Shown: in pieces, positions 2,040 to 43,286 of the stretch
Numbering within the stretch: position 1 is the stretch's first letter
How the letters are laid out: every line of letters begins with the position of its first letter
Assembly (NCBI RefSeq): GCF_016899855.1
Contig: NZ_JACJJG010000001.1
Location: 62,001 to 126,000 of the forward strand
Source: Marseilla massiliensis
GTDB taxonomy: Bacteria > Bacteroidota > Bacteroidia > Bacteroidales > Bacteroidaceae
Length of the DNA: 64,000 nucleotides
Direction: 5' to 3'
The notes under the pieces: generated by a model
What the model was told of the DNA's origin: nothing
Seen by the model: the letters and a program-made list of their open reading frames with translations, nothing else
Databases searched by the model: none
Translations under genes and position numbers: made by a program

Positions 2040-3179
2040 ATGGAATTCAAGCGTAACATAATCATCACAGGCGGAGCTGGCTTCATCGGCTCCCACGTAG
2101 TGCGCCTGTTCGTAAACAAGTATCCCGAGTACCGCATCATCAACCTCGACAAGCTGACATACGCCGGCAACCTTGCCAACCTGAAGGACGTGGAGGACAA
2201 GGATAATTACATGTTCGTCAAGGCCGACATCTGCGATTACGGGACTATACAGAAGCTGATGAAGGACTACAACGTGGACGGCATAATCCACCTTGCAGCC
2301 GAGAGCCACGTAGACCGCTCTATAAAGGACCCGTTCACCTTCGCCCAAACCAACGTGATGGGCACGCTGACGCTGCTCCAGGCCGCCAAGGAATACTGGG
2401 AGAGCCGTCCCGAGGGCTACGAGGGCAAGCGCTTCTACCACATCTCTACCGACGAGGTTTACGGCGCGTTGGAACTGACAAACCCCGAAGGCATAGAGTC
2501 GCCGTTTACGACAAAGGCAAGCTCGGAGCATCACCACGCCTACGGTACCGAGTTCTTCACAGAGGAGACTAAGTATAATCCTCACTCTCCTTACTCTGCT
2601 TCAAAGGCAAGCTCTGACCATTTCGTACGCGCGTTCCACGACACTTACGGCATGCCTACGATAGTAACCAACTGCTCCAACAACTACGGGCCTTACCAGT
2701 TCCCTGAGAAGCTGATACCATTGTTCATCAACAACATACGCCACCGCAAGCCGCTGCCGGTTTACGGCAAGGGCGAGAACGTGCGCGACTGGCTCTATGT
2801 AGAGGACCACGCCCGTGCCATCGACCTGATATTCCACGAGGGCAAGACGGCGGACACTTACAACATAGGCGGCTTCAACGAGTGGAAGAACATCGACATA
2901 ATAAAGGTTGTGATAAAGACCGTAGACCGTCTGCTTGGCCGCAAGGAAGGCGAGGACATGGACCTGATAACCTACGTAACCGACCGCAAGGGCCACGACA
3001 TGCGCTATGCCATAGACTCGCGCAAGCTGCAGCGCGAACTCGGCTGGGAGCCTAGCCTGCAGTTCGAGGAAGGCATAGAAAAGACCGTGCGCTGGTATCT
3101 GGACAACCAGGAGTGGATGGATAACGTTACTTCAGGCGACTACCAGAAGTATTACGAGAGTATGTATAAAGGAAGATAA
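2040..3179 (+). CDS. rfbB: dTDP-glucose 4,6-dehydratase (left copy, intact)
   Basis: RfbB/RmlB (379 aa) converts dTDP-glucose to dTDP-4-keto-6-deoxyglucose. It shows GGAGFIGSH at the N-terminus, STDEVYGAL around the catalytic Asp-Glu region and [10 protein letters not shown] with the Tyr/Lys pair. Length is normal for Bacteroidales RmlB, which carries an insertion ([11 protein letters not shown]) before the catalytic Tyr. It is nearly identical in protein to the frameshifted copy at 19220-20358. Since that copy is broken, this gene is probably the only functional RmlB of the locus. It is followed by a sharp fall in GC content into the capsule core. Confidence 0.93.
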   Translation: MEFKRNIIITGGAGFIGSHVVRLFVNKYPEYRIINLDKLTYAGNLANLKDVEDKDNYMFVKADICDYGTIQKLMKDYNVDGIIHLAAESHVDRSIKDPFTFAQTNVMGTLTLLQAAKEYWESRPEGYEGKRFYHISTDEVYGALELTNPEGIESPFTTKASSEHHHAYGTEFFTEETKYNPHSPYSASKASSDHFVRAFHDTYGMPTIVTNCSNNYGPYQFPEKLIPLFINNIRHRKPLPVYGKGENVRDWLYVEDHARAIDLIFHEGKTADTYNIGGFNEWKNIDIIKVVIKTVDRLLGRKEGEDMDLITYVTDRKGHDMRYAIDSRKLQRELGWEPSLQFEEGIEKTVRWYLDNQEWMDNVTSGDYQKYYESMYKGR

Positions 3180-19219: not shown

Positions 19220-20358
19220 ATGGAATTTAAAAGAAACATCATCATAACAGGTGGAGCGGGTTTTATCGGAAGCCATGTGGTGCGCCTGTTCGTAAACAAA
19301 TATCCTGAATACCGCATCATCAACTTAGACAAGCTGACATATGCCGGCAACTTGGCTAATCTGAAAGATGTGGAAGACAAACCGAACTATACTTTCGTAA
19401 AAGCCGACATCTGCGAATACGGAACGGTGAAGGCATTGCTAGAGAAGTACAACGTTGACGGGATAATCCACCTTGCGGCAGAGAGCCACGTTGACCGAAG
19501 CATAAAGACCCGTTCACTTTTGCACATACAAACGTTATTGGTACGCTGACGTTACTGCAAGCCGCAAAGGAATACTGGGAGAGCCGCCCCGAAGGATACG
19601 AGGGAAAGCGCTTCTATCATATCTCGACCGATGAGGTTTACGGTGCGTTGGAGCTAACGAATCCCGAGGGAACAGAGTCGCCGTTCACCACTAAAGCATC
19701 GTCGGAGCACCACCATGCTTACGGAACGGAATTCTTTACCGAGGAGACGAAATACAATCCCCATTCTCCCTACTCTGCATCGAAGGCAAGTTCAGACCAT
19801 TTTGTCCGTGCTTTCCATGACACATACGGTCTGCCGACAATCGTAACCAATTGCTCAAACAACTACGGACCATACCAGTTCCCGGAGAAACTGATACCTT
19901 TATTTATCAATAACATCCGCCATAAGAAACCGCTGCCTGTCTACGGGAAGGGCGAGAACGTGAGGGACTGGCTGTATGTCAAGGACCACGCAAGGGCGAT
20001 TGACCTCATTTTCCATAATGGCAAAATAGCAGACACCTACAACATCGGTGGCTTCAACGAGTGGAAGAACATCGACATCATCAAGGTGGTGATAAAGACC
20101 GTTGACCGTCTGCTCGGAAGAAATGAGGGCGAGGACATGGATCTCATCACCTACGTTACAGACCGCAAAGGCCACGATATGCGTTACGCCATCGACTCAA
20201 GGAAACTTCAACGTGAATTGGGTTGGGAACCGAGCCTGCAATTCGAGGAAGGCATTGAAAAGACAGTCCGCTGGTATCTTGACAACCAGGCTTGGATGGA
20301 TAACGTGACAAGCGGCGACTACCAACGGTATTACGACGGGATGTACAAGAACAGATAG
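19220..20358 (+). pseudogene. rfbB: dTDP-glucose 4,6-dehydratase (right copy, frameshifted)
   Basis: The frame starting at 19220 gives a perfect RmlB N-terminus (ITGGAGFIGSHVVRLF through SHVDRSIK) and then leaves the family at 19507. The family sequence resumes in another frame and runs to 20358 with [19 protein letters not shown] and the normal C-terminus. Aligning with the left copy shows one missing G: the left gene has AAAGGACCCG where this one has AAAGACCCG. Apart from this base the gene is complete, so it is a very recent mutation or a sequencing error. The left rfbB could complement it. The truncated product keeps only the NAD-binding part. Confidence 0.88.
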
Positions 20359-21341: not shown

Positions 21342-23303
21342 ATGGCCTACCCCTCGATTATTGGATTTTATAAAACTTTCAACCAAGAATTATATTCCAT
21401 GAATAAAGAAAAGAGACTCGAAATATTCAGGTCCATTCAGAAACTGGGGTCTATCTGGGGAAAGGCGGATTGTGTGGAAATGCTCGAAAGCATTTGGAAT
21501 CTTCACCTGTTCACATCGGAAGATCCAAGGTTTAAAGACGCATACGGGGATGCTGTTCAACATTTGAGGAATAATGATGACTGGGATGAGGAATATACTT
21601 TCTTAACCAGGTTTGGATTGCTAACTTCCAACGATGAAGTATTCCACAAGTTTCTTAATGCTGTTGTTTCTAAAAATGCCAGAAGTTCCAAGGAGGAAAT
21701 AGAGCGTTATGTGGATACATTAAATCCGTTGTTGAGAAATGAAGGCATTGAATACAGATTGCAAGATAAAAGGGAAGAACTTCCAATCTATGAGATTGAA
21801 GAGTTAAAAGACAATGTGGAAGAACACCCCCGCGATATTGCCAAAAACCATATCAGCTTCTATGTCAACAAAACTCCATCATCGTTTCCAGCTCTTGTGC
21901 TTTATAGTGACTTATGGGATGATTATAGCAGAAAAACACGTTTCCAACTCTATTATATGCAGAACGTGAATGTGCAAAGTGTGGAGATTGGTTCTGTGAA
22001 AATCATGCACGCCAATGAATTTGTGACCAAGAATGTCATTCCACAATGTTTTTTCGAACTATCGGAAGAATTCTGTTCCGTCGGACAAGAAGTGGAATAC
22101 TACAAAAATATCAAGGAACAGTTCCCTGAAAATTACAAGGTCATCTTGTATGCCTTGCGGGATGCCGCCTACTTTTCCATCATAGCCGACCGCTACCAAC
22201 ACACCATATCTTTCCAAAAATCCTTGCTGAGATATCCAGACGCATTGAAAGCATTCAGGGATGCACATGGTATTATGGAGGGAATTGACATGAGCAACAG
22301 GTATAATTTTACTCTGTACGCGAAGAGGCCATACTTTGACAACGTGGTAAATGTGGATATGAGTTTCGGCGACTTGGATGGTAAGGACAATCTCAACAGA
22401 ATAAAAGCCTTGATAGGCGAGAATGGTTCGGGCAAGTCATCGGTGCTTTACTCTCTTGCCAAAGCATTGCATGACAGAGATGAGACGGTTTTCGAGAATG
22501 GCAAAATTCCAGACTTTTCAAAGGTGATAGCCATTTCTTACAGCATTTTTGATAAGCTCTTTGAACTGACCCACAAATCTTCCTTTAACTTTGTTTATTG
22601 CGGATTGCGTAATAGGGATAATGAGCTGATAACTGAAAAAGACAAAAAGGAACGGTTTGAGATCTCTCTTGAAGAGATAGTATATAAGGAGCGTACCTCT
22701 GATTATCACAGCACTTTAACAGAAGTGGTGAACGAAGAACTTTTGAATGAAATATTTCTGAGTAGGGAAAATATCGACAAGAGGAAGTTTCATGGGATTA
22801 TAAGTAAAATGAGTAGCGGACAAGCGATGATTACGTCAATCATTACAGAATTGTATGCCCATATCCGTGAAAATTCACTCATACTCTTTGACGAACCTGA
22901 AGTGCATCTCCATGCCAACGCGGTCACAGAACTTGTCCGGATTCTATTCGAAATCTGTAATGAATTCAATTCGGCGTGCGTGGTCGCGACGCACTCTGCG
23001 GTCGTCCTGCAGGAACTTCTTGCAAGAAACGTGATTGTGCTGGAACAGGATAAGGTCACCAAAGAACGCCGAACCAGACTTATGAACACAGAAACACTTG
23101 GCGAGAACCTGACTACCATCACAGAAGATGTGTTCGGACGTTCAACAATAGACAAACATTATGGATATGTCATTCGGCAACTTGTTCGTAAGGGTAAAAG
23201 TATGGATGATATAGAAAAAATATTGAAGTCGGAGGAGTTACCGATGAGTTTGAATCTCTATATGTACATAAGAAGGCAAATGGAAATAAAAGCTGATGAT
23301 TAA
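21342..23303 (+). CDS. AAA/ABC-type ATPase, Septu PtuA-like
   Basis: The protein has 653 residues. About 340 residues of unrecognised N-terminal sequence precede an ABC/AAA15-type ATPase: Walker A GENGSGKSS at 359-367, signature-like MSSGQAMITS, Walker B LILFDEPEVHLH with Asp517-Glu518, and the ATHSAVV H-loop. The gene overlaps the following HNH gene by 8 bases. An OLD/AAA15-like ATPase with an HNH partner is the layout of Septu (PtuA-PtuB) anti-phage systems, where the ATPase is thought to sense infection and control the nuclease. An alternative start is ATG 21399. The long N-terminus is larger than in the typical PtuA I know, so it may be a distinct subtype. Confidence 0.75.
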   Translation: MAYPSIIGFYKTFNQELYSMNKEKRLEIFRSIQKLGSIWGKADCVEMLESIWNLHLFTSEDPRFKDAYGDAVQHLRNNDDWDEEYTFLTRFGLLTSNDEVFHKFLNAVVSKNARSSKEEIERYVDTLNPLLRNEGIEYRLQDKREELPIYEIEELKDNVEEHPRDIAKNHISFYVNKTPSSFPALVLYSDLWDDYSRKTRFQLYYMQNVNVQSVEIGSVKIMHANEFVTKNVIPQCFFELSEEFCSVGQEVEYYKNIKEQFPENYKVILYALRDAAYFSIIADRYQHTISFQKSLLRYPDALKAFRDAHGIMEGIDMSNRYNFTLYAKRPYFDNVVNVDMSFGDLDGKDNLNRIKALIGENGSGKSSVLYSLAKALHDRDETVFENGKIPDFSKVIAISYSIFDKLFELTHKSSFNFVYCGLRNRDNELITEKDKKERFEISLEEIVYKERTSDYHSTLTEVVNEELLNEIFLSRENIDKRKFHGIISKMSSGQAMITSIITELYAHIRENSLILFDEPEVHLHANAVTELVRILFEICNEFNSACVVATHSAVVLQELLARNVIVLEQDKVTKERRTRLMNTETLGENLTTITEDVFGRSTIDKHYGYVIRQLVRKGKSMDDIEKILKSEELPMSLNLYMYIRRQMEIKADD

Positions 23304-24153
23304 CTTCAAACATTATAGTGAGGATGCCTTTACACTCTATAAGGATGCAGTTGAGCGGAAAACGGGCCATGGTAAGGATGGATTAAAACGGATAGAGGAA
23401 AAGGTGAAATCTGCTTATGATAGTTACGATTCTGCATTTGGTCAAAAACATGTGCATACATTATTGCCCTCTGATTTGTTCTCAGAAGAGGAAAAAGAGT
23501 TATTGGAGGGGATGTTTGATAGTGACAATAAAATCGTGAGAACCATTCGGAAATGGATAGATGCCAATAATAACAGAACTTATCTGAACAGGTGCCCTTA
23601 CTGTACCTTAAATGCGGCCAACACAACCGAGCATATCCTACCCAAGTCTTTTTATGAGGAGTTTGCGGTGCATGCTTTAAACCTTATTCCCTGCTGTTCC
23701 GAATGCAACTCCAAGAAAGGTGATACCTTTAAGGACAGAAGTGGGAACCCACTGTTTTTGAACTTCTATTATGACATATTGCCAAAAAAACAGTATTTAT
23801 TTGTGGATTTGTCATTTGACGGAAAGGGTGTCGTGAACTTCAACTATCGCTTGGATAATATTAATCATATAGATGTCAGGTTGTTTTATTTGATTTGTAG
23901 GCATTATGAGAAGTTGGATTTGCTGAAAAGGTTTAAGACGAAAGCTATCTCTGAATATCCTGAAATTGAAAATAGTTTGCGAGCTTTTTGGCCTCATGGG
24001 AATATTGATGCATTCATGGCCAATCTGAAAATGAAGGCACTGCTGGATGCTAAGAGTTATGGGTATAACTACTGGAAAGTAGTGTTGTATCTTGCCCTTG
24101 CAGATTCAAATGATTACAAAGCATATTTGGATGGAATCAAGAAAAGACGTTAG
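23296..24153 (+). CDS. HNH endonuclease, Septu PtuB-like
   Basis: The protein has 285 residues. Residues 100-141 form a zinc-supported HNH module: CPYC (100-103), TEHILPKSF with His113, and LIPCCSECNSKKGD with Cys134/Cys137 and Asn138. These are the expected metal and catalytic positions. The start ATG lies inside the last codons of the ATPase gene, so the two are translated together. It is expected to cut nucleic acid (DNA, or tRNA as in some relatives) once released by the ATPase. The C-terminal 140 residues are helical and unrecognised. Confidence 0.78.
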   Translation: MINFKHYSEDAFTLYKDAVERKTGHGKDGLKRIEEKVKSAYDSYDSAFGQKHVHTLLPSDLFSEEEKELLEGMFDSDNKIVRTIRKWIDANNNRTYLNRCPYCTLNAANTTEHILPKSFYEEFAVHALNLIPCCSECNSKKGDTFKDRSGNPLFLNFYYDILPKKQYLFVDLSFDGKGVVNFNYRLDNINHIDVRLFYLICRHYEKLDLLKRFKTKAISEYPEIENSLRAFWPHGNIDAFMANLKMKALLDAKSYGYNYWKVVLYLALADSNDYKAYLDGIKKRR

Positions 24154-24156
24154 GTT

Positions 24157-25110
24157 GTGCGAATGAAACTGATTATCATATACATATTATTATTCGTTGG
24201 TTGCATTTTGCTGTCGTTTAAATTCCTTTACGAAAATGTACCAAGCTCAGAATCCGATATGCTGGTCAGATTATATTACATCGGAGGTGTTGTCAGCGGT
24301 ATTTTTGCATTCGGCGCGTTTTTCGTAGCTATTCTAACCTATCACAATCAAAAGAAAACCGGAGATCTACAGCGGTTTGAGACCACACTGTTTAATATGT
24401 TGCAACTCCAACAACAGATTACCAATGAACTTCGGTATGAAGATACAGAGCCTGACAGGAATCCTAACCATGAAGAAAACACCGGTTGGAGAACCATTGA
24501 AAAACGTGGAAGGGATATTTTCGAACATTTCTGGGTTTCCAAATGGTTCAGTTTTAGAGAAATCATCGATGGTAAGATTTCTCTTGATGAAAAATCTTGG
24601 TATGAAGGAATGATGAACGTCTTGATGAGCAGGGGCTCTGAAGCGTATAATCAATTAACCGAAATAACCACTTTCGATCATTATTTCAGACATTTATACA
24701 GAATTATCAAATTTATCGATAAGAACAAGGCACTCAATGACAAAGAAAAATATGCTTATATAAGCATTGTAAGGGCTACATTGTCAAGATTTGAATTAGT
24801 CTGGCTGTATTATAATTGCCTTTTCGGTGTGGGTAAACCAAAATTTAAGCCACTAATAGAAAAGTATGCGTTGTTGAAGAATCTGCGGGATGAGTTTCTC
24901 ACAATCAGTAAAGATGTGATTGAAAAAGACTATTTTCGGAAATATCAAATGATAATTGACGATTACCTGAATTATCTGACCATAGACAAGAATGATACGT
25001 CAAAGTATTATATCGGTGCATTTTACAATTCAAGGGATAAAGAAAGTTTTTTTAAGGTCATAGAAGATTTCAAAAGCTGTCCTGCCGCAAAATTGGACAA
25101 AGAGAGTTGA
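24157..25110 (+). CDS. putAbiC-like membrane abortive-infection protein
   Basis: The protein has 317 residues. Two membrane segments near the N-terminus (about residues 4-24 and 40-62) are followed by TYHNQKKTGDLQRFETTLFNMLQLQQQI, which resembles the putative phage abortive infection family (putAbiC). The rest is helical and probably cytoplasmic. It starts 3 bases after the HNH gene (GTG 24157 or ATG 24163). Position suggests a membrane-acting third component, or a separate Abi gene sharing the operon; no enzymatic motif is visible. Confidence 0.65.
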   Translation: MRMKLIIIYILLFVGCILLSFKFLYENVPSSESDMLVRLYYIGGVVSGIFAFGAFFVAILTYHNQKKTGDLQRFETTLFNMLQLQQQITNELRYEDTEPDRNPNHEENTGWRTIEKRGRDIFEHFWVSKWFSFREIIDGKISLDEKSWYEGMMNVLMSRGSEAYNQLTEITTFDHYFRHLYRIIKFIDKNKALNDKEKYAYISIVRATLSRFELVWLYYNCLFGVGKPKFKPLIEKYALLKNLRDEFLTISKDVIEKDYFRKYQMIIDDYLNYLTIDKNDTSKYYIGAFYNSRDKESFFKVIEDFKSCPAAKLDKES

Positions 25111-25136
25111 TAAACTCTTATAAATCCCTTACCATT

Positions 25137-27425
25137 ATGTTGCGTAAATACCAACATAACATAAAGCAGTCTCTTATTTCTGAATGGGAAAAGCACAATA
25201 GCATTATGGTGCAAATGCCCACGGGAACAGGCAAGACACACCTGCTTGCCTCGGTCATATCCGACCATTTGGAGAAAACCGGAGGCAAGGCCGTGTGGAT
25301 TGTCGCCCATCGGCGGGAACTGGTAGAGCAGATAGAGGAAACGGTCGCGCAGTACAGCATCCGGAAAGAGGACGGGCTGGTCAAGGCTATGTCCATCCAA
25401 TGGCTGTCAAGGCATTGGGAGGACGTGGATGATGAAAGGCCGAGCCTGATTGTGATAGACGAAGCCCATCATGCATTGGCGGAAACCTACCAGGAACTGT
25501 GGCTACGCTATCCTGAAGCGAAGAAATTAGGTATGACCGCCACACCTTGCCGACTGAACCGCAAGGGGTTCACGGACTTGTTTGACACGCTCATCACATC
25601 GGACAGCATAGCGGACTTCATCCGTCAAGGGTGGCTTTCGCCTTTTGATTATGTATCCATACGTCCAGACAGTGAAGACCAAAAGCTAATAGACTGTTTG
25701 GAAAAACGTGGGGCGGACGGAGATTTCCAAGTAAAGGAGATGGATACCGTGCTGAATAAACGGCCAAGCATCGAGAGACTGTATGAAAGCGTAAGACAAT
25801 ACGCCGACGGAAAGAAAGGCATAATCTATGCAATAAGTATCAGCCACGCACGGAATATCGCGGAATATTACAAGGGACACAGAATGAACGCCGTCGCCAT
25901 AGACAGCAAGACACCTGCAAAAGAGCGAAAACGACTTGTAGAGGATTTCCGGCAAGGCGGAATACAGGTACTGGTCAATGTGGATGTGTTCAGCGAGGGG
26001 TTCGATTGTCCGGACGTTGAGTTCGTGCAAATGGCTCGGCCGACCCTTTCGCTTGCCAAATACCTGCAGCAAGTAGGACGCGGACTGCGCAAGACAGATG
26101 GCAAGGAAACCTGCATGTTGATAGACAACGTGGGGCTGTACCGTCTGTTCGGGTTACCAACAGCTTACCAGGACTGGCAGGCCATGTTCGAGGGACGGTT
26201 GGCAGGAAAAGGTTATCTAACCGCAAACGCGAGGAATGTTTCCTGTATGGCTGCCGGGCAACTGAAAGACGAGACATTAAATGCGGACGGTTTACTGGAA
26301 ACGATTGTATCGCACGGACAGTTGATGGATTACCTGCAAAGCGGTTCTTCCCGGTTTGATAATGACGCTTTGCAAGCAGAAGCCCTGAAACCATATAAAG
26401 ACCGTCAAAGTGGGCTTTGGGGATTGAAGCAAGGACAGACTATCACAACCAAAGCGCAATACCGCACCGTATTTGACGTGAAAGACAATTTTGCAGCCGT
26501 AAGATTCGAAGACAACCGGGTCGGCATCGTGGATGGAAACGGGAACATACGGATGAAGCTCAACCGGTATCGGTACATAAAATTCCTGCCGGACGACATT
26601 GTAGCCGTGACGGACAATACCGGACATACATTTTACATTGATTTGAAAACAGCCAAACTGTATAACGGGAAACCGGAAGTGCTGAAATACGGGAGGATTG
26701 AGATGCTGAGGGTCGGAATGGTGTATTATAGCCGCACCAAGAATGTCTATAAGAGTCCGTTGGGAATAAACAGTTTTGACTTGGTGCCACGTGGCTTCTA
26801 TTTGCGGATTTATACAAGTCTGACCGACAACTGTAAGTTCAGACACATAGACAGCGAGGATGCTTTCCTTCATCAGGATTGTGTGTGCATCCTGGCGAAT
26901 GACGAAGAAGAATACTATGGATTCTGCGGCGAACTGGTAGACGGCAGCATCGTGATTACGGACGGAAAGGGAAATTACTACCATGCCATGGACGGCAAGG
27001 AGAAGCAATACATCGCCTGCGAGCACCCAAAGACACAAGACGAGGATTTTGATGTGGCGGTGTCACGACTGAAAGCGGAAGCCGAGGCGAGAGCCGCTAA
27101 GATGAAAGCGGACCATCAACGGGAAAAAGAAAAGAAACAGCAGATGCGACTGGCTAAAATACAAGATGCCGTTCCGTTCCAATCGGGATTGAAATGGGGG
27201 CTGAGAGCAGGCAGCCGCGTCATCGTGCCGCCCATTTACCGCAGCATACAGAACCCCGTGGGCAACTATTGTGTCGTGGAAACCAATCCCCGTCAATGGG
27301 GCATCATCAGGCTGGACGGCAAGGTAGTAGTGGAGGCACGGTACACGAATGTGGAGATAAGCAATGGCGGGACAGCCCGGTTGACCGTCTTCCCTGGCAT
27401 AACAAAGACGGTGAATTTAAAATAG
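25137..27425 (+). CDS. SF2 DEAH helicase with C-terminal WG-like repeats
   Basis: The protein has 762 residues. Helicase motifs run in order: QMPTGTGKTH (Walker A, 28-34), AHRRELVEQ, VIDEAHHAL (DEAH, 108-111), MTATPCR (133-137), NVDVFSEGFDCPDV and QQVGRGLRK (motif VI). From about residue 425 come repeats such as SGLWGLKQGQ, NRVGIVDGNG, LKWGLRAGSRVIVPPIY and RQWGIIRLDGKVV, like WG beta-repeats. A charged coiled coil (about 635-680) lies between repeat blocks. ATG 25137 is preferred over the TTG at 25107. It is co-directional with and close to the Septu/Abi genes, so it may be part of the same defence unit, or a mobile-element helicase. Confidence 0.8.
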   Translation: MLRKYQHNIKQSLISEWEKHNSIMVQMPTGTGKTHLLASVISDHLEKTGGKAVWIVAHRRELVEQIEETVAQYSIRKEDGLVKAMSIQWLSRHWEDVDDERPSLIVIDEAHHALAETYQELWLRYPEAKKLGMTATPCRLNRKGFTDLFDTLITSDSIADFIRQGWLSPFDYVSIRPDSEDQKLIDCLEKRGADGDFQVKEMDTVLNKRPSIERLYESVRQYADGKKGIIYAISISHARNIAEYYKGHRMNAVAIDSKTPAKERKRLVEDFRQGGIQVLVNVDVFSEGFDCPDVEFVQMARPTLSLAKYLQQVGRGLRKTDGKETCMLIDNVGLYRLFGLPTAYQDWQAMFEGRLAGKGYLTANARNVSCMAAGQLKDETLNADGLLETIVSHGQLMDYLQSGSSRFDNDALQAEALKPYKDRQSGLWGLKQGQTITTKAQYRTVFDVKDNFAAVRFEDNRVGIVDGNGNIRMKLNRYRYIKFLPDDIVAVTDNTGHTFYIDLKTAKLYNGKPEVLKYGRIEMLRVGMVYYSRTKNVYKSPLGINSFDLVPRGFYLRIYTSLTDNCKFRHIDSEDAFLHQDCVCILANDEEEYYGFCGELVDGSIVITDGKGNYYHAMDGKEKQYIACEHPKTQDEDFDVAVSRLKAEAEARAAKMKADHQREKEKKQQMRLAKIQDAVPFQSGLKWGLRAGSRVIVPPIYRSIQNPVGNYCVVETNPRQWGIIRLDGKVVVEARYTNVEISNGGTARLTVFPGITKTVNLK

Positions 27426-28028
27426 TCCCGAAGTTTATCTGATGCTATTTTTACATCTCCACTTTATTTGTTATTATTGCATTAAATTCAACCATTAAAG
27501 AGAATAATATGATAACCAAAAAAACGAAACAGATATGCCTGACAACCTGAAAACGGGCATCGAAAGCCTCTCCAGGCTTTTCAAAGGATGACGTGCGTGT
27601 GCATTACAATTCCGACAAGCCTGCCACCGTGCAGGCATTGGCATATACGCAAGGAACATACATCCACGCGGCTCCTGTCCAAGAACGGCATTTACCACAT
27701 GAGGCATGGCACGTGGCTCAACACAAGAAAAGCCACCCCTAAAGGTGGCTGTCTTGCTGAACGTGTCCTTGTCGCTACCGAAAACGGAGAATAAGTCAGG
27801 ACACGGAATATTACATTAATGTAATGATAGTGGGATGCCGAAGCTGCGGATGAATGAAAAGGTTTCCTCCAATCCCGTTGAGGGTTTCTCACCGGAAAAT
27901 ACGGGACTTCCGCTGGATGAGCCCTAACCAGATATGAATCCGTACACCTTCTCCTGAATTTGCACGGAACATCCGCTTGTTTAATGTCGCTACCCCCATA
28001 GTCCGACACTGCAAAATTATAAAAAATC
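27426..28028. other. Low-coding gap holding a DUF4157 fragment
   Basis: No intact gene is credible here. The left part contains the broken DUF4157 gene described separately. A short hairpin (AGCCACC / GGTGGCT, 27731-27750) overlaps its end. From 27751 to 28028 I see no gene; a - strand open frame there has implausible composition. A TAATTTTG sequence on the - strand (28012-28019) fits the Bacteroides -7 consensus but faces no clear gene. Confidence 0.5.
27535..27742 (+). pseudogene. DUF4157 (eCIS-core-like) fragment, frameshifted
   Basis: The first frame from 27535 reads MPDNLKTGIESLS, then hits a stop near 27588. Shifting frame at 27587 gives DDVRVHYNSDKP, QALAYTQGT and HLPHEAWHVAQ, then a stop at 27740. 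Together these are the core of the DUF4157 domain, whose family consensus includes HEAWHVVQQ, a zincin-like HExxH variant. Only the roughly 65-residue core survives and the normal C-terminal toxin or effector part is absent. Such domains occur in effectors and toxins associated with contractile injection systems and other conflict systems. It lies between two defence-like genes, so it is probably decayed cargo. Confidence 0.75.
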
Positions 28029-29075
28029 ATGGATTATCCAATAGAAATAACAGGAAAAACGATAAAACAGGTCACTAAGCTGAACTTATCCAACCTTGGA
28101 CTGACTGAAATTCCCGAAAATATTTTTCTTTATACGAATTTGACCAAACTGACACTAAGCGGCAATCAAATACGGAACATACCGAAAGACATCTTAAAAT
28201 TAAGGAAGTTGAAAACCATCGACTTGTCTAAAAACGAGATCAAGACATTGCAAAGCGCCTTGTTCAAACTGCCGAATTTAAGGACACTCAATCTTTATTG
28301 TAATAACATTACCGCTTTACCGAAACAGTTTTATGACTCTTCTATAACGTGCCTGATAGCCGGTCACAACAGGCTAACGGCGGTGGATTTTAAGAAACTG
28401 CACAACATCGAATCGTTAGACTTGACATACAACCAATTAACCTCCATTCATATAGGAGCGGAAGCCAAGGAGTTGAAGGTGTTGAGAATTAAAGGAAATC
28501 CTTTGGAAAATTGTTCTATAGACCAAGCTGTGAGAAATCAGTTAAGCTACATAGACGTTGACATTAATAAATATATCAATAATAAACTATCCATCATGAA
28601 AGCAGCAGAAAGTATCGTTAAAAAAGATACAGGAATTCATCACATATTTATAAGTTACTCACACGATGATGCCAAATGGCTGGAAAAATTGAAGAAACAC
28701 CTGAAGGGGCTGAAAAACTATTATGATTTTGATGAATGGGACGACCAAAGGCTCAAGGCCAGCGATGAATGGGAAAAGGAAATATCAGAAGCGTTGGAAC
28801 GTTCAACAATAGCCATCTGCCTTGTGTCCGCTTCATTCATGGCTTCCGACTATATTATGGGAAACGAACTGCCACCCTTGTTCAATAAGGCCAATCATAA
28901 CGGCACAAAAATAATACCTTTGATGGTCAGTGCCTGTGGCGTATTTGAAGACTGTTGGCTGTCAAAATATCAAGCTGCAGGCAGCCCGCAAAAAACTCTT
29001 TCCGAATGTACGGACGCAGAAGTCGAACGTCGACTGGCAAATTTGACGATAGCCCTCAAAGAACTGATCAAGTAA
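28029..29075 (+). CDS. LRR-TIR fusion protein
   Basis: The protein has 348 residues. Residues 15-165 hold about six leucine-rich repeats of the L..L.LS.N.L..IP type (LTKLTLSGNQIRNIP, LKTIDLSKNEIKTL, LESLDL-like units). After a short helix, residues 203-345 form a TIR domain: HIFISYSHDDAKWL (205-218), a DFDEW segment (233-237), ICLVSASFMASDYIMGNEL, with Glu280 at the position of the catalytic glutamate of NAD-cleaving TIR domains. No signal peptide or membrane segment is present, so it is cytoplasmic. Recognition by LRR and NAD depletion by TIR is the expected logic, by analogy with bacterial TIR defence proteins. It has its own terminator and no tight operon partner. Confidence 0.85.
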   Translation: MDYPIEITGKTIKQVTKLNLSNLGLTEIPENIFLYTNLTKLTLSGNQIRNIPKDILKLRKLKTIDLSKNEIKTLQSALFKLPNLRTLNLYCNNITALPKQFYDSSITCLIAGHNRLTAVDFKKLHNIESLDLTYNQLTSIHIGAEAKELKVLRIKGNPLENCSIDQAVRNQLSYIDVDINKYINNKLSIMKAAESIVKKDTGIHHIFISYSHDDAKWLEKLKKHLKGLKNYYDFDEWDDQRLKASDEWEKEISEALERSTIAICLVSASFMASDYIMGNELPPLFNKANHNGTKIIPLMVSACGVFEDCWLSKYQAAGSPQKTLSECTDAEVERRLANLTIALKELIK

Positions 29076-29095
29076 TCCCACTATATTAAAGAACT

Positions 29096-29142
29096 AAATG
29101 CCATTCCCTATTCCTGTTATCAGGAACAAGGAGTGGCATTTT
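29096..29142 (+). terminator. Intrinsic terminator after LRR-TIR gene
   Basis: AAATGCCATTCC pairs with GGAGTGGCATTT, with an inner TTCCTG/CAGGAA stem and a TTAT loop, followed by TTTTCTTT. The hairpin begins 21 bases after the stop codon. Confidence 0.8.
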
Positions 29143-29257
29143 CTTTATCCGGCCATTCATATATAAAATGTTCATTGTTGAATACATTAAAATATAATAT
29201 ATTTTTTACTTTCTGGAACTTTTCATCAAAAGGATTACAGCATTGTACAACCAATGC

Positions 29258-35102: not shown

Positions 35103-35605
35103 CACAAACTACTTCACAACCGCCATTTACGCGACCCGACACCCTGCAACTGCGGCCACGGACGTTGCAGTTTTTTATCGACAACCTGCCGTTGCTGACG
35201 CTCGACCTGTGCGGTTACGCTTGTGCCGGGATGGACGGAATGCTGTTCAAGGGATTGTTGCTTTGGTTGTCAGTGGCCATGTCGTTGGTCTTGGCTTACC
35301 GTTTTATCTACCTCAAACGCATGATTTACCGCATTACGGACGAACAACTGATATACGAGCACGGGGTGATTACCCGGAGCAGCGATTATGTGGAACTATA
35401 CCGGGTGGTGGATTTCGCCGAGCGGAGCAACCTGCTGCAACAGCTTTGCGGACTGAAAACCGTGAGCGTCCATTCGGGCGACCGCACCACGCCCCGGCTT
35501 GACATCATCGGCATGGACATGAACAATGACCTGGTGTCTGTCATCCGTGGACGGGTGGAATTGAACAAACGAAGAAAAGGAATCTATGAAATCACGAACC
35601 GTTAA
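35099..35605 (+). CDS. PH-domain (bPH2) membrane protein
   Basis: The protein has 168 residues. Two membrane segments occur at about 30-48 and 52-70 (LLLWLSVAMSLVLAYRFIYL), followed by a YdbS-type bacterial PH domain: RMIYRITDEQLIYEHGVITR, ELYRVVDFAERSNLLQQL and CGLKTVSVHSGDRTTP. It probably sits in the inner membrane with its PH domain in the cytoplasm. It overlaps both neighbours (4 and 20 bases), so it is firmly in the transfer-type operon. Confidence 0.8.
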   Translation: MTQTTSQPPFTRPDTLQLRPRTLQFFIDNLPLLTLDLCGYACAGMDGMLFKGLLLWLSVAMSLVLAYRFIYLKRMIYRITDEQLIYEHGVITRSSDYVELYRVVDFAERSNLLQQLCGLKTVSVHSGDRTTPRLDIIGMDMNNDLVSVIRGRVELNKRRKGIYEITNR

Positions 35606-36278
35606 GATACTGACTATTGTATTTGCCTTGTGCTTCAGTATCAGTGTACAAGCGCAATACGTGCAGACCAATCCTTTGGAATGGCTGGCCCTGGCGGAAG
35701 GCAACGAGGCCATCAACGGCCAGATACAAGACCAGATAGAGGGGCAGACCAAGACGGCGGTCTTGCAAAACACCATAGCCGCCGAGTTCAACCGTATCCA
35801 CGAATGGGAACGGAAGTACAACGATTACCTGCAGACGGTGGAAGGTTATGCCTCCTCCTTGAAAGCAGCCACCACCCTGTATGAGGACGGGGTGCGCATC
35901 TTCATCACCCTCGGTAAGCTGCGCAAGGCCGTTACCAGTAATCCGCAGGGCATTGTCGCCACGATGAGTATGAACAACCTCTACATTGAAACGGCTACGG
36001 AATTGGTTTCAGTTTATACGCTGCTCAGGAATGCCGTGGCCACAGGAGGCCTGCAGAATATGCTGACCGGGGCGGAACGGAGCGAAACCCTCTGGGCTTT
36101 GTCCGACAGGTTGGACGCTTTCAGCAAGAAACTGCACTTGTTGCATCTGAGCATACGCTACTATACGATGACCGATGTATGGAACAATGTTACCGCCGGG
36201 ATGATAGACAGGAGCAACGGGGAAGTTGCCCATGCCGCCTTGGACAGATGGCGAAGGGCGGCAAGGACTATCCAATGA
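35586..36278 (+). CDS. Secreted TrbJ/TraI-like transfer protein (paralogue 1)
   Basis: The protein has 230 residues. The signal peptide TVKILTIVFALCFSISVQAQ is followed by a helical mature protein with IHEWERKYNDYLQTVEGYASSL and a RLDAFSKKLHLLHLSIRYYTMTDVWNNV segment. The layout recalls periplasmic TrbJ/VirB5-like or Bacteroidales TraI proteins. The next gene is a divergent paralogue with the same ending (YTSLADVWATI, RAAMRRWRR). It probably contributes to the conjugation apparatus in the periplasm. Confidence 0.65.
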   Translation: MKSRTVKILTIVFALCFSISVQAQYVQTNPLEWLALAEGNEAINGQIQDQIEGQTKTAVLQNTIAAEFNRIHEWERKYNDYLQTVEGYASSLKAATTLYEDGVRIFITLGKLRKAVTSNPQGIVATMSMNNLYIETATELVSVYTLLRNAVATGGLQNMLTGAERSETLWALSDRLDAFSKKLHLLHLSIRYYTMTDVWNNVTAGMIDRSNGEVAHAALDRWRRAARTIQ

Positions 36279-36309
36279 AGAATGAAAAATGATGAATGAA
36301 GAATTAAGA

Positions 36310-36993
36310 ATGGCAGAGATAATGAGACACATCGTGATAATGGGCTTGCTGCTTGTTTGCTCGTTGCAATTAAAGGCACAAATCGACCCGACCCTGGCCG
36401 GGATGGTGTACCTCTATACCGAAAAGGCGGAAGACCAGTTGAAAGCACAGGAGCGGGCGATGCTGATGCAGACCACCGGGCATATCTGGACACGGGAGGA
36501 AGTGGAAGGCACGACGGACATCCAACGGAAGTTCAACGACTACCTCGATTCTTTCCGCGACATCATCAGCTATGCGGCACAGATATACGGCTTCTACCAC
36601 GAGGTAGGCAAACTGGCCGAAAATATGGGGAGCCTGAACGACCAATTGCGCAGCCATGCGGGAAACGCCATTGCTGTGGCACTCACCCCGAACCGCAACC
36701 GCATCTACCAAGAGCTGATATTGGGCAGCGTGGAAATCGTGAACGACATCCGGCAAGTATGCCTGAGTGACACCAAGATGACCGAGAAGCAGCGGATAGA
36801 ATTGGTGTTCGGCATCCGGCCGAAGCTGAAAGCGATGAACCGGAAACTGCGCCATTTGACATTGGCGGTGAAATACACCTCGCTGGCCGATGTGTGGGCG
36901 ACCATCGATGAAGGGGCAAGGCCGCAGAAAGCGGACAAGGCGGAAATAGCCCGTGCCGCCATGCGCAGATGGAGAAGAAACGGAGATTTATAA
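36310..36993 (+). CDS. Secreted TrbJ/TraI-like transfer protein (paralogue 2)
   Basis: About 227 residues. I place the start at ATG 36310 or 36322 because both give a clean signal peptide (MRHIVIMGLLLVCSLQLKAQ); upstream in-frame ATGs lie in a GAAGAAT-rich spacer. The mature part has KFNDYLDSFRDIISYAAQIYGF and RKLRHLTLAVKYTSLADVWAT, parallel to the previous gene (KYNDYLQTVEGYASSL, IRYYTMTDVWNNV). Tandem duplication followed by divergence is the simplest explanation. Likely a periplasmic channel component. Confidence 0.65.
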   Translation: MAEIMRHIVIMGLLLVCSLQLKAQIDPTLAGMVYLYTEKAEDQLKAQERAMLMQTTGHIWTREEVEGTTDIQRKFNDYLDSFRDIISYAAQIYGFYHEVGKLAENMGSLNDQLRSHAGNAIAVALTPNRNRIYQELILGSVEIVNDIRQVCLSDTKMTEKQRIELVFGIRPKLKAMNRKLRHLTLAVKYTSLADVWATIDEGARPQKADKAEIARAAMRRWRRNGDL

Positions 36994-40649: not shown

Positions 40650-43286
40650 ATGAGCAAGAATAAAAGTCCTCAAGAGAAAGCCGCAGTGGAAAGGGAAAAG
40701 GAACTGCTGTCAGGCGCATTAAACGGAGCGGCAAGCAGCGGCGGCTACTGGCTGAACGCTTCGGGCAGGACGGCTCCCATGTTTTACCCGAAAGGCCCTG
40801 AAGTTAGTCCATTCAACGCTCTCATACTCGCTATGCACACCGACCGTGGAGGTTACAAGACCGCCCGTTATTTCTCGTTCAACGAGGCCAAGAAATACGG
40901 ACAAGCGGTGCTGCAAGGTGAAAAAGGTGTGCCCTTCCATTGGTACAAATGGGAGAAGTATGTTAACCGCAACGACCCGAACGACACGATGTCGAGGGAG
41001 GATTACCTCCGGATGGACAAGGAAGAGCGGAAACAATACAAAGGAGTGCGCAACCGGGAGATACGCATCCTGTTCAACGTGGACCAGACCACGCTGCCCG
41101 ATTCCAATCCCGAAACCTACCGTGCCCTACTGGAGAGCCATGGCGGCATCAACGACCGGGGCAACCTCAAGGCGGAAGAGCGGCAGTTGCGGAACGCCGT
41201 CAACCATTTCGTGGCGCAGGTCAAGGAAAACCTCGTACCTATCCGCAAGGACGGCACAGGCATACCCCGTTACGACACCGCCAAGGATGCCGTCTATATG
41301 CCAGACCAAAAGCATTTTGCCTCTTACCCCGACTATGTGCAGGAATTGGTGCGCCAAGTGGCAAGTGCCACCGGGCATCAGCAACGTCTTGCCCGTGAAG
41401 GCATGGTGATGCAAGGCGGCAAGGCACCTTCGGAAGATGCCGTGAAATATGAACGACTGGTGGCTGAACTCGCCGCTGGCGTGAAGATGTCGGAGTTCGG
41501 TCTGCCGGCCAAGATGTCAGCGGAGAACCTGCCTTTGGTGGAATACTGGACGAAGGAACTGCACGAGAACCCAATATTGCTGGAAGCCATCGAAACGGAC
41601 GTGAACAATGCCGTGGAGGTGATGCGCAAGGCGGAGCGTGGCGAGAAGATAGAATACGCGGCCTTGCGGGATCACAAACGCACCACCGAACTGCGCGAGA
41701 AACAGAAGCCGCAAGTAGATTCAAGGGAGAGCGCCATCCTGCTCGACATCATCCGTAAGGGAGGCATGGGCGTGGACAGCCGCAATTTCGCCTCTCCCGC
41801 CGAGAAACAGGGCTTCATGGAAAAGTTTAGTCTGGGCTTTTATGACAAAAAGGTGGAAGAAGCATTGTCGAGGGTACGTGACGAAGACCCCGAAGTGGTG
41901 GAAATCGCCTTTACCGAAGCCGCCAATTACGGCACCCAGATGGCGGAGTCCTGCAAGGAGTACATTCCTGCCGAGTGGAATACCAAGGGCAGCTATGCGG
42001 TGTCTGACAGCTTGGAAGGGATACCCGACCGCTCCACCAAGGAGATGGTCATCGTGCGCGACAAGCAGACGGGCCTCGTGGATGTCGTGCTGCCTGGCGG
42101 GGCGTTGGAAGGTGGCCATGTGGTCTTGCCCGACGGTGACAAACGTCCGTACAGCCTGACACCGGACGAGGTGATGAGTGCCCAAGAACGGTCGGAACGC
42201 GGGGCAAAGGCGGTGACGAACAACCTGCCCGGCTTCTCCAAGCCACGCATCGAGAGTGCCTTGCGGGCGCAAGGCGCTGCATTCGTCCGTTTCTTTAACA
42301 AGGACGGCTTACTGGGTTTCCGTCCCGATGACAGCTACTTTGAGGGCAAGGAGGTAACTACGGCCAAATTAGAGGGCAAGGAACTGCGGACACTTTCGCA
42401 CATCGATGTGTCCGAGGCGGTGAAAAACGCGACCACCGTGCAGTTCGACCGCATACAGATGCTGCGTGACGATGACGGGCGGTGGGCGTTGTACCTTAAA
42501 CCACAGGGAGAGGCGTCATTCAGCGTCTATCCCGACAAGGAGGATGTCAACCGTTTCTTCACCACCATCAAGCAAGGGCAACAGGAAGCGTCCGCCGAAG
42601 TCCGCCGCAGCTTGGCCAATAAATACTACGCCTTGGCGCAGAATAAGCCGGAACTGAAAACGGACTTGTTCGCTGGTCACACCGAGAATGCCGACCTGTC
42701 AAGGATTAAAAGAGTGAATATTTTCCGCACTAAGGACGAGCGCATCCTCTGCGCCCCGGTCATTGATGGCGTGGAGAAGGTACAGCCGAGGCTGGTGACG
42801 CCCCAACAGTGGCAACGGATGTGGGCGGCGGAGGATATGGCCGAATACAAAACTAATCTGGCAGGCATGCTCTTTGCCGATGTGTTGCAACAGGCAAACG
42901 CACAAATCCAGTCACAGGAATCCAAACAAGGAGAACAAACCAACATGGCATCTGAGGCCACCGCCAAAGGACACTCTTTCACCCCGTCCATGCAGGAACA
43001 GTTCGGCCAACTTAAATCCAAACACCCAGATGCTTTGCTGCTGTTCCGGACCGGCGACAACTATGTGGCCTACAAGGAGGATGCACAGACCGCCTCACGG
43101 ATATTGGAACTTGATGTGGAACAGGGAGATAAGGCGGATACCGTTTCATTCCCCTTCGTGGATTTGGACACCCATCTTCCCAAACTTATCCGTGCAGGGC
43201 AACGGGTAGCAATTTGTGACCAATTGGAAGAATCCAAGCAAACGGTAAGCCATGAGAATGAGGCACGTGTGGGGCGTGGGAGATAA
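40650..43286 (+). CDS. ArdC-like / MutS domain I fusion protein
   Basis: The protein has 878 residues. Near the N-terminus, YFSFNEAKKYGQAVLQGEKG, VPFHWYKWEKYV and ILFNVDQTTLP parallel the ArdC-type N-domain of the protein at 45458. The middle (about 200-760) has several DUF3945-like units. The last 110 residues, MQEQFGQLKSKHPDALLLFR through VAYKEDAQTASRILEL and LPKLIRAGQRVAICDQLEE, are a close match to MutS domain I, which in MutS binds mismatched DNA. No MutS ATPase follows. It may bind DNA during transfer or protect incoming DNA; this is inference. Confidence 0.7.
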   Translation: MSKNKSPQEKAAVEREKELLSGALNGAASSGGYWLNASGRTAPMFYPKGPEVSPFNALILAMHTDRGGYKTARYFSFNEAKKYGQAVLQGEKGVPFHWYKWEKYVNRNDPNDTMSREDYLRMDKEERKQYKGVRNREIRILFNVDQTTLPDSNPETYRALLESHGGINDRGNLKAEERQLRNAVNHFVAQVKENLVPIRKDGTGIPRYDTAKDAVYMPDQKHFASYPDYVQELVRQVASATGHQQRLAREGMVMQGGKAPSEDAVKYERLVAELAAGVKMSEFGLPAKMSAENLPLVEYWTKELHENPILLEAIETDVNNAVEVMRKAERGEKIEYAALRDHKRTTELREKQKPQVDSRESAILLDIIRKGGMGVDSRNFASPAEKQGFMEKFSLGFYDKKVEEALSRVRDEDPEVVEIAFTEAANYGTQMAESCKEYIPAEWNTKGSYAVSDSLEGIPDRSTKEMVIVRDKQTGLVDVVLPGGALEGGHVVLPDGDKRPYSLTPDEVMSAQERSERGAKAVTNNLPGFSKPRIESALRAQGAAFVRFFNKDGLLGFRPDDSYFEGKEVTTAKLEGKELRTLSHIDVSEAVKNATTVQFDRIQMLRDDDGRWALYLKPQGEASFSVYPDKEDVNRFFTTIKQGQQEASAEVRRSLANKYYALAQNKPELKTDLFAGHTENADLSRIKRVNIFRTKDERILCAPVIDGVEKVQPRLVTPQQWQRMWAAEDMAEYKTNLAGMLFADVLQQANAQIQSQESKQGEQTNMASEATAKGHSFTPSMQEQFGQLKSKHPDALLLFRTGDNYVAYKEDAQTASRILELDVEQGDKADTVSFPFVDLDTHLPKLIRAGQRVAICDQLEESKQTVSHENEARVGRGR

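What the first reader, a model, noticed from the sequence alone, without database searches (positions are those of the whole stretch)
28029..29075. LRR-TIR fusion: a sensor-effector protein in plant-like domain pairing
Six or so leucine-rich repeats are joined directly to a C-terminal TIR domain that keeps FISYSHDD and a glutamate at the catalytic position (Glu280). LRR sensing and TIR NADase signalling are standard in eukaryotic immunity but the direct fusion in a 348-residue bacterial protein, with no NTPase between, is unusual. It has its own terminator and sits in a defence-like island.
Basis: partly seen in the sequence, partly recalled or inferred. Interest (0 to 1): 0.75.

Follow-up and report, generated by a model that had tools for sequence, protein, structure and literature searches.

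The report
Small bacterial LRR-TIR candidate defence protein
A bacterium carries a small protein that joins a leucine-rich-repeat recognition part directly to a TIR enzyme part; relatives, several of them beside phage-defence or phage genes, suggest a rare and simple anti-phage alarm that has not been tested experimentally.

Summary
Window 28029-29075 (+) is an intact 348-aa ORF: about seven N-terminal leucine-rich repeats, then a TIR domain, no NTPase, no hydrophobic membrane stretch. Glu280 aligns with the glutamate of plant TIR NADases and is present in 53 of 53 TIRs examined. It is not 'plant-like': plant TNLs run TIR-NB-ARC-LRR; this is LRR-TIR.

Five loci (window, G787, G1312, G1277, G1195) lie near Abi-type, PtuAB-like, phage or integrase genes; neighbours are mostly not shared. 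One genome of the same family joins a related LRR front end (43% identity over 173 aa) to a SEFIR domain matching the anti-phage bSEFIR profile at 1.5e-69. That apparent effector exchange is the best evidence that the LRR half is sensor/regulator and the TIR half effector.

Best reading: a one-gene NAD-cleaving abortive-infection receptor. Trigger, NADase activity and protection are inferred. TIR-LRR association in bacteria was mentioned in 2019. New variant of a known kind.

The parts
28029..29075 (+). LRR-TIR gene, 348 aa
   Evidence: relatives
28068..28508 (+). leucine-rich repeats, residues about 14-160, about 7 repeats (count and limits by eye): proposed sensor
   Evidence: LRR_8, LRR_4, LRR_1; related module joined to a SEFIR domain in G121
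28509..28640 (+). repeat cap and linker, residues 161-204; codons 141-202 have dN/dS 0.34 against 0.09 for the TIR
28641..29072 (+). TIR domain, residues 205-348: proposed NAD-cleaving effector
   Evidence: TIR_2, TIR and ThsB-type profiles; AF2 model of the domain with a TIR-like fold
28866..28868 (+). codon of Glu280, predicted catalytic glutamate
   Evidence: aligned with the DEL glutamate of plant RPP1 TIR; 53 of 53 TIRs
29097..29140 (+). terminator-like hairpin with T-rich tail
   Evidence: z -7.5; not listed
28330..29200 (.). divergent patch against Marseilla L002 (limits approximate): dS 0.75 in codons 141-348 against 0.03 in codons 1-100; 2 of 603 bases differ upstream, 16 of 416 downstream
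21342..24153 (+). neighbouring PtuA-like ATPase (AbiJ_NTD3) and HNH pair, PADLOC PDC-M01A/B: island context, not claimed as partner
24157..25110 (+). neighbouring putAbiC/AbiP-like protein with a hydrophobic N-terminal stretch: context
25107..27425 (+). neighbouring RadD-like helicase with a sub-threshold WG-repeat match: context; also beside the gene in Marseilla, no match near the other homologues

Best explanation
A single-gene cytosolic immune receptor of the abortive-infection type. The LRR solenoid binds a phage protein (or a host protein altered by infection); binding or clustering brings TIR domains together, which completes the active site around Glu280, and NAD+ is cleaved, stopping the infected cell. 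Shown by sequence here: domain order, conserved glutamate, a TIR-like fold in a moderate-confidence model of the domain, no NTPase, no hydrophobic membrane stretch, mobile or defence surroundings of several relatives, no partner gene found travelling with the family, and a related protein with the same kind of LRR front end on a bSEFIR-type effector. Inferred: ligand binding by the LRR, oligomerisation, NAD+ cleavage, growth arrest, phage protection.
For: Glutamate in 8 of 8 LRR-TIRs (read off the alignment) and 53 of 53 TIRs recruited by a TIR profile; a profile of six TIRs aligned to plant RPP1 (7crb) puts it on the DEL glutamate. TIR-only AF2 model (pLDDT 65, pTM 0.59) aligns to TIRs: 4c6t_A (RPS4/RRS1 entry) Z 13.5, rmsd 2.7, 131 aligned; BtTir 7uxr_B Z 11.4; SPARTA 8qlp_A Z 11.0. 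Effector exchange: G121 LRR 43% identical over 173 aa, C-terminus bSEFIR 1.5e-69, its LRR grouping with those of the window, Marseilla and G232 at 96/96 in a tree of 9; in the 399-genome search the next LRR protein scored 40 bits against G121's 125. Contexts: G787 in a prophage-like region, with a virion/tape-measure-type protein on one side and AbiH and an integrase on the other; G1312 with AbiH, FRG/PDC-S15 and another TIR protein; G1277 with AbiJ_NTD3-Abi_C, a second Abi_C gene and SocA/Panacea; window with PDC-M01A/B; G1195 with an integrase about 4 kb away. Purifying selection on TIR codons (dN/dS 0.09).
Against: No activity, expression or phage data. Full-length model unusable (pLDDT 51, pTM 0.39), so domain arrangement is unknown. 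The TIR model is only moderate: best Foldseek E is 1.6e-4, and non-TIR flavodoxin-like folds also match (dehydroquinase and lumazine synthase; 3hly_A at Z 9.9). No named defence gene was found beside the G232 homologue (judged by eye), and G528 lies near a contig end with a start that may be truncated, so defence context is not universal. PADLOC gave no family for the two AbiH proteins and the second Abi_C protein, which only Pfam calls. LRRs are generic; a swap of effectors does not prove sensing. The 53 TIRs were recruited with a profile that contains the glutamate. Some TIRs with this glutamate make signals rather than deplete NAD.
Confidence: 0.55

Rival explanations
1. Signal-maker, not executor: the TIR makes a cyclic ADP-ribose-type messenger, as ThsB does, that activates a separate effector elsewhere in the genome.
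For: Best PADLOC match of the TIR is ThsB (4.9e-16); two further TIR_2 proteins and a SLOG protein lie on contig C282.
Against: No ThsA among the six neighbours scanned. STALD search of the own genome found nothing, but its control rang nowhere, so it does not show absence. The only SIR2_2 match lies in a 1180-aa frame on another contig. No partner found travelling with the homologues.
Confidence: 0.2
2. Regulatory or scaffold protein: LRR-TIR used for protein-protein interaction without an enzymatic role.
For: No activity shown by any search here; that TIR domains can be scaffolds is established knowledge (recalled).
Against: Glu280 in 8 of 8 and 53 of 53; a related LRR carries another NADase-class domain.
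Confidence: 0.15
3. Half of a two-gene system with the upstream RadD-like helicase.
For: Helicase is adjacent in the window and in Marseilla.
Against: About 600 bp between them; no match to the helicase in the fetched flanks of G232, G528, G787, G1312, G1277 or G1195 at E 1e-6.
Confidence: 0.06
4. Secreted factor acting on an animal host.
For: LRR-only matches to type III effector models (XopAC 1.7e-14, XopL 1.3e-12), far below their curated cut-offs.
Against: No N-terminal hydrophobic segment; relatives lie in a prophage-like region and among Abi-type genes; the LRR similarity is generic.
Confidence: 0.04

Closest known systems
bSEFIR anti-phage protein (PADLOC PDLC03957)
   Same: The G121 relative has a related LRR module followed by a SEFIR domain that matches this profile at 1.5e-69; SEFIR systems are cited as NAD+-depleting (PMC12774641, one passage).
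   Different: The window protein carries a TIR, not a SEFIR (bSEFIR match only 0.039).
Thoeris ThsB
   Same: TIR domain of the same broad class (4.9e-16).
   Different: No ThsA among scanned neighbours; only the TIR part matches, the LRR part does not.
Bacterial TIR-NLR (P4-satellite system) and plant TNL receptors
   Same: A TIR joined to a recognition region; TIR-NLR protects against phages (PMC9122126, passages).
   Different: That architecture has the TIR at the N-terminus, an NTPase, then repeats (PMC9153377, passages); here LRR-TIR without NTPase.
LRR-Roc-COR-TIR (Roco) proteins in the same phylum
   Same: LRR first, TIR last; their TIRs fall in the same poorly resolved part of the TIR tree.
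   Different: The two scanned are 877 and 1079 aa with Roc and COR domains between.
Animal Toll-like receptors
   Same: LRR then TIR order (recalled).
   Different: Membrane receptors (recalled); here no hydrophobic segment and an NADase-type glutamate.
Bacterial TIR-LRR mentioned in PMC7145615 (Chloroherpeton, Rhodopirellula)
   Same: Earlier mention of TIR and LRR association in bacteria (passage).
   Different: Those sequences were not compared here; the passage gives no function.

Membership tests
TIR domain family (NADase type) | TIR sequence profile and fold | tested here: met
   TIR_2 6.9e-16, above cut-off; model of the domain aligns to TIRs, best Z 13.5
TIR domain family (NADase type) | catalytic glutamate | tested here: met
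   Glu280 by alignment
TIR domain family (NADase type) | NAD+ cleavage | not testable with these tools
   needs an enzyme assay
Thoeris | ThsA partner next to ThsB | tested here: not met
   six neighbours scanned with PADLOC, seven with Pfam: no ThsA
Thoeris | ThsA anywhere in the genome | tested here: inconclusive
   STALD none, control silent; one SIR2_2 match in a 1180-aa frame
TIR-CBASS | SMODS-type nucleotidyltransferase in the genome | tested here: not met
   0 of 1 genome, control ringing in 3 of 14; other nucleotidyltransferase families not searched
TIR-CBASS | SAVED or STING sensor on the TIR protein | tested here: not met
   none in Pfam; the PADLOC SAVED_TIR match (1.3e-9) covers only the TIR part, 205-301
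TNL / NLR receptors | NB-ARC or NACHT NTPase | tested here: not met
   no NTPase family in the protein
bSEFIR | SEFIR domain | tested here: not met
   window protein 0.039 only; met by the G121 relative
Toll-like receptor | signal peptide and transmembrane segment | tested here: not met
   maximum 19-residue Kyte-Doolittle 1.46, inside the TIR; N-terminal maximum 0.13; membrane-type neighbour 2.64; simple hydropathy only
Compact LRR-TIR group described here | LRR then TIR in one ORF of 331-405 aa (first start codon), glutamate present | tested here: met
   8 sequences

The most novel reading that the evidence does not exclude
A minimal cytosolic pattern-recognition receptor in bacteria: an LRR that binds a phage protein directly and switches on a fused NADase without any NTPase or messenger, with a modular back end (TIR or SEFIR) exchanged between relatives and alleles shuffled by recombination inside the gene.
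Probability: 0.35. Interest if true: 0.75.

Novelty: new variant of a known kind. Interest (0 to 1): 0.5.

Why it matters
The TIR defences in the review passages I read (PMC10952713) are switched on by a partner, a messenger or an NTPase-containing receptor. A direct LRR-TIR fusion would be a very small one-gene receptor whose trigger can be sought with phage escape mutants, and the natural TIR/SEFIR exchange on related LRRs makes the sensor/effector split directly testable. It would also bear on how LRR-plus-TIR receptors could arise more than once.

Tried and rejected
Full-length AF2 with 6 sequences (A4): pLDDT 51, pTM 0.39, not used. TIR-only AF2 (A9): moderate, used for fold only; no claim about active-site geometry.

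Viral contigs: the 3 hits share one stretch; the two whose ORFs I listed lie in an integrase-type protein, judged by eye, and I take the third as the same. Scans with A1 and P0003 confirmed none. A TIR-only scan gave 4 loci with no LRR hit in the same ORF; only found three of these contigs again. Plasmids: 63 records matched, 0 cover 80% of the query; the 40 listed are LRR-side or TIR-side matches. Phages: 3 matched, all LRR-side.

Search for other effectors on the LRR cap (A6) in 277 genomes: 3 matched, the known G787 and two weak partial ones (G842, G1611), not followed.

Single origin of the fusion: the TIR tree needs 2 changes for the 8 rows (shuffled mean 7.7, 0 of 500 as low); one clade is not rejected (AU p 0.483) and not shown.

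Helicase partner, Thoeris, CBASS and host-directed effector were considered and placed as rivals or failed membership tests.

Rows dropped before the tree and the E280 count: L053_p31 (fragment), L133_p3 and L133_p166 (weak, 1e-7 and 2e-6), whose glutamate I did not examine; hits with under 80 profile positions or i-Evalue above 1e-5 were also left out. The neighbour comparison left out the window/L002 pair.

LRR and TIR in L036 and L077 were assigned with the window's two halves by phmmer, and L101-L103 by full-length profile match and alignment; none of these five was run against Pfam (L036 and L077 were, which failed).

Papers: PMC9153377, PMC13142454, PMC8195603, PMC11249213, PMC9092222, PMC12774641, PMC11559045, PMC9122126, PMC10952713, PMC7145615 and PMC7159879 were seen as passages only; all others as search listings. 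That I saw no experimental report of a bacterial LRR-TIR defence rests on the listings (searches listed 20 of 21, 12 of 17 and 15 of 19) in an open-licence library only.

Full report
What is there. The window encodes an intact 348-aa protein at 28029-29075 (+). Pfam finds LRR_8 (1.6e-18), LRR_4 (6.2e-17) and TIR_2 (6.9e-16, residues 206-303), and no NTPase. By eye there are about seven repeats of 21-24 residues. Hydropathy shows no signal or membrane segment (maximum 1.46 inside the TIR, N-terminal maximum 0.13; the neighbouring putAbiC-type protein gives 2.64). A hairpin with a T-rich tail follows the gene (z -7.5). The opposite strand of the gene is broken by stops in the frame looked at.

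Surroundings. Upstream lie an ATPase with an AbiJ_NTD3 domain and an HNH protein (PADLOC PDC-M01A 9.7e-117 and PDC-M01B 7.7e-69), a putAbiC-type protein (3.5e-24) and a RadD-like helicase. Downstream genes include a Toprim protein, two ArdC-type anti-restriction proteins and cell-wall hydrolases, which suggests a mobile element; I identified no integrase or transfer gene. A 12-kb block of it is 95.7% identical to Marseilla massiliensis DNA, so a related host in Bacteroidota is likely (inference).

Relatives. Marseilla massiliensis An819 (Prevotellaceae) has an 86% identical protein beside the same helicase. Searches of whole genomes gave six more with both domains in one ORF: G232 (399 genomes), G528 (393 genomes; seen), G787 (395 genomes; seen), and G1312, G1277 and G1195 (251 genomes; 4 full-length matches including G787). 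The session counter stood at 1,439 genomes. Query models and thresholds differed and at most 30 loci per call were fetched, so six is a lower bound. By first start codon the eight are 331-405 aa; identity to the window protein outside Marseilla is 28-39%. The G528 protein may be cut at its N-terminus.

Glutamate. E280 is the same column in all eight LRR-TIRs (read off the alignment) and in 53 of 53 TIRs recruited from the fetched loci; the recruiting profile contains the glutamate, so this is not free of selection. The profile of six TIRs aligns to plant RPP1 TIR with this residue on the plant DEL glutamate; that the plant residue is catalytic is recalled. The TIR-only model (pLDDT 65, pTM 0.59) aligns best to TIRs: 4c6t_A (Z 13.5, rmsd 2.7, 131 aligned), BtTir (Z 11.4) and SPARTA (Z 11.0). 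Foldseek E-values are modest (best 1.6e-4) and non-TIR flavodoxin-like folds appear too. The full-length model was unusable.

Effector exchange. In G121 (same family) the LRR is 43% identical to the window's over 173 residues, but the C-terminus is a SEFIR-type domain (Pfam SEFIR 1.5e-11 and TIR_2 6.2e-18; PADLOC bSEFIR 1.5e-69). In the search that found it the next LRR protein scored 40 bits against 125. In a tree of nine LRR regions G121 falls with the window, Marseilla and G232 at 96/96. LRRs are repetitive and the tree is small, so this is good but not conclusive evidence for a swap.

Islands of the relatives. G787: prophage-like region with a virion/tape-measure-type protein (PHROGs), AbiH (3.1e-21) and an integrase. 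G1312: AbiH (5.6e-28), FRG/PDC-S15 (5.8e-87) and another TIR protein. G1277: AbiJ_NTD3-Abi_C, a second Abi_C gene and SocA/Panacea, with a resolvase-like gene judged by eye. G1195: a phage-type integrase about 4 kb away. G232: among genes that look by eye like a conjugative element, no named defence gene. G528: near a contig end, no named defence gene. PADLOC found no family for the two AbiH proteins and the second Abi_C protein. Apart from the LRR-TIRs themselves and the G121 protein, neighbour comparison of nine loci gave three cross-locus matches: AbiJ_NTD3 of G1277 against the window ATPase (30% over 116 aa), one G528-G1195 pair (34% over 99 aa), and the G232 LRR-TIR against a G1312 neighbour (31% over 113 aa), probably through a TIR-like part. 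The two AbiH proteins did not match each other at 1e-6. I read the gene as self-contained.

Evolution inside the gene. Window and Marseilla differ at 2 of 603 bases upstream, dS is 0.03 in codons 1-100 and 0.75 in codons 141-348, and 16 of 416 bases differ downstream. A jump in synonymous divergence points to recombination with another allele rather than selection alone. Within that part the TIR is under strong purifying selection (dN/dS 0.09) and codons 141-202 less so (0.34). Other divergent stretches occur in the same block (about 25-27 kb and 35.5-36.5 kb), so patchy exchange is not special to this gene.

Mechanism. The best-supported reading is a one-gene abortive-infection receptor: the LRR recognises an infection-associated protein, TIRs associate, NAD+ is cleaved. 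Thoeris fails on the neighbouring partner, with the genome-wide test inconclusive; CBASS fails on SMODS and sensor; NLR on the missing NTPase; TLR on the missing membrane segment.

Novelty. TIR-LRR association in bacteria was mentioned in 2019, together with TIR-NB, for two species (PMC7145615, passage), and TIR fused to repeat sensors is a recognised architecture group (PMC9153377, passage). What appears new is a homologous compact LRR-TIR group with mobile or defence surroundings in several members and the SEFIR counterpart; the listings I saw held no experimental report that I recognised. New variant of a known kind.

Noticed in passing
G000 contig C282 (L136:2756-11481): A sugar-nucleotide (rml-type, by eye) cluster is followed by a ThsB-like TIR protein (2.8e-47), a SLOG protein, Nmad2, an HMUDK_hel (5-hmdU kinase-type) protein, a thymidylate-synthase-like protein and a ThsB_TIR protein: a possible defence cassette.
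   Followed up: partly
window 40650-43283: 878-aa ArdC-type anti-restriction/metallopeptidase protein with a C-terminal MutS domain I match (6.6e-20).
   Followed up: no
window 19220-20355: A gene that looks by eye like rmlB is split into two ORFs (109 and 236 aa), while a similar one at 2040-3176 is 379 aa long; frameshift or sequence error.
   Followed up: no
window 27426-28028: 600 bp between helicase and LRR-TIR without a convincing gene, 2 of 603 bases different from Marseilla.
   Followed up: no
window 35500-36500: Another divergent stretch (8-11%) against Marseilla between stretches at about 1%.
   Followed up: no
L143 (2224-4854, -), L146 (1729-4965, -): LRR-Roc-COR-TIR proteins in the same phylum with TIRs in the same open part of the TIR tree as the window's.
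   Followed up: partly
G000 contig C210 (L151): SIR2_2 domain (1.4e-23) in a 1180-aa frame, perhaps a large SIR2 defence protein.
   Followed up: no
L133:10660-11514: A second TIR-like neighbour of the G1312 LRR-TIR (weak profile hit 2e-6), so three TIR-type genes may lie in one island.
   Followed up: no
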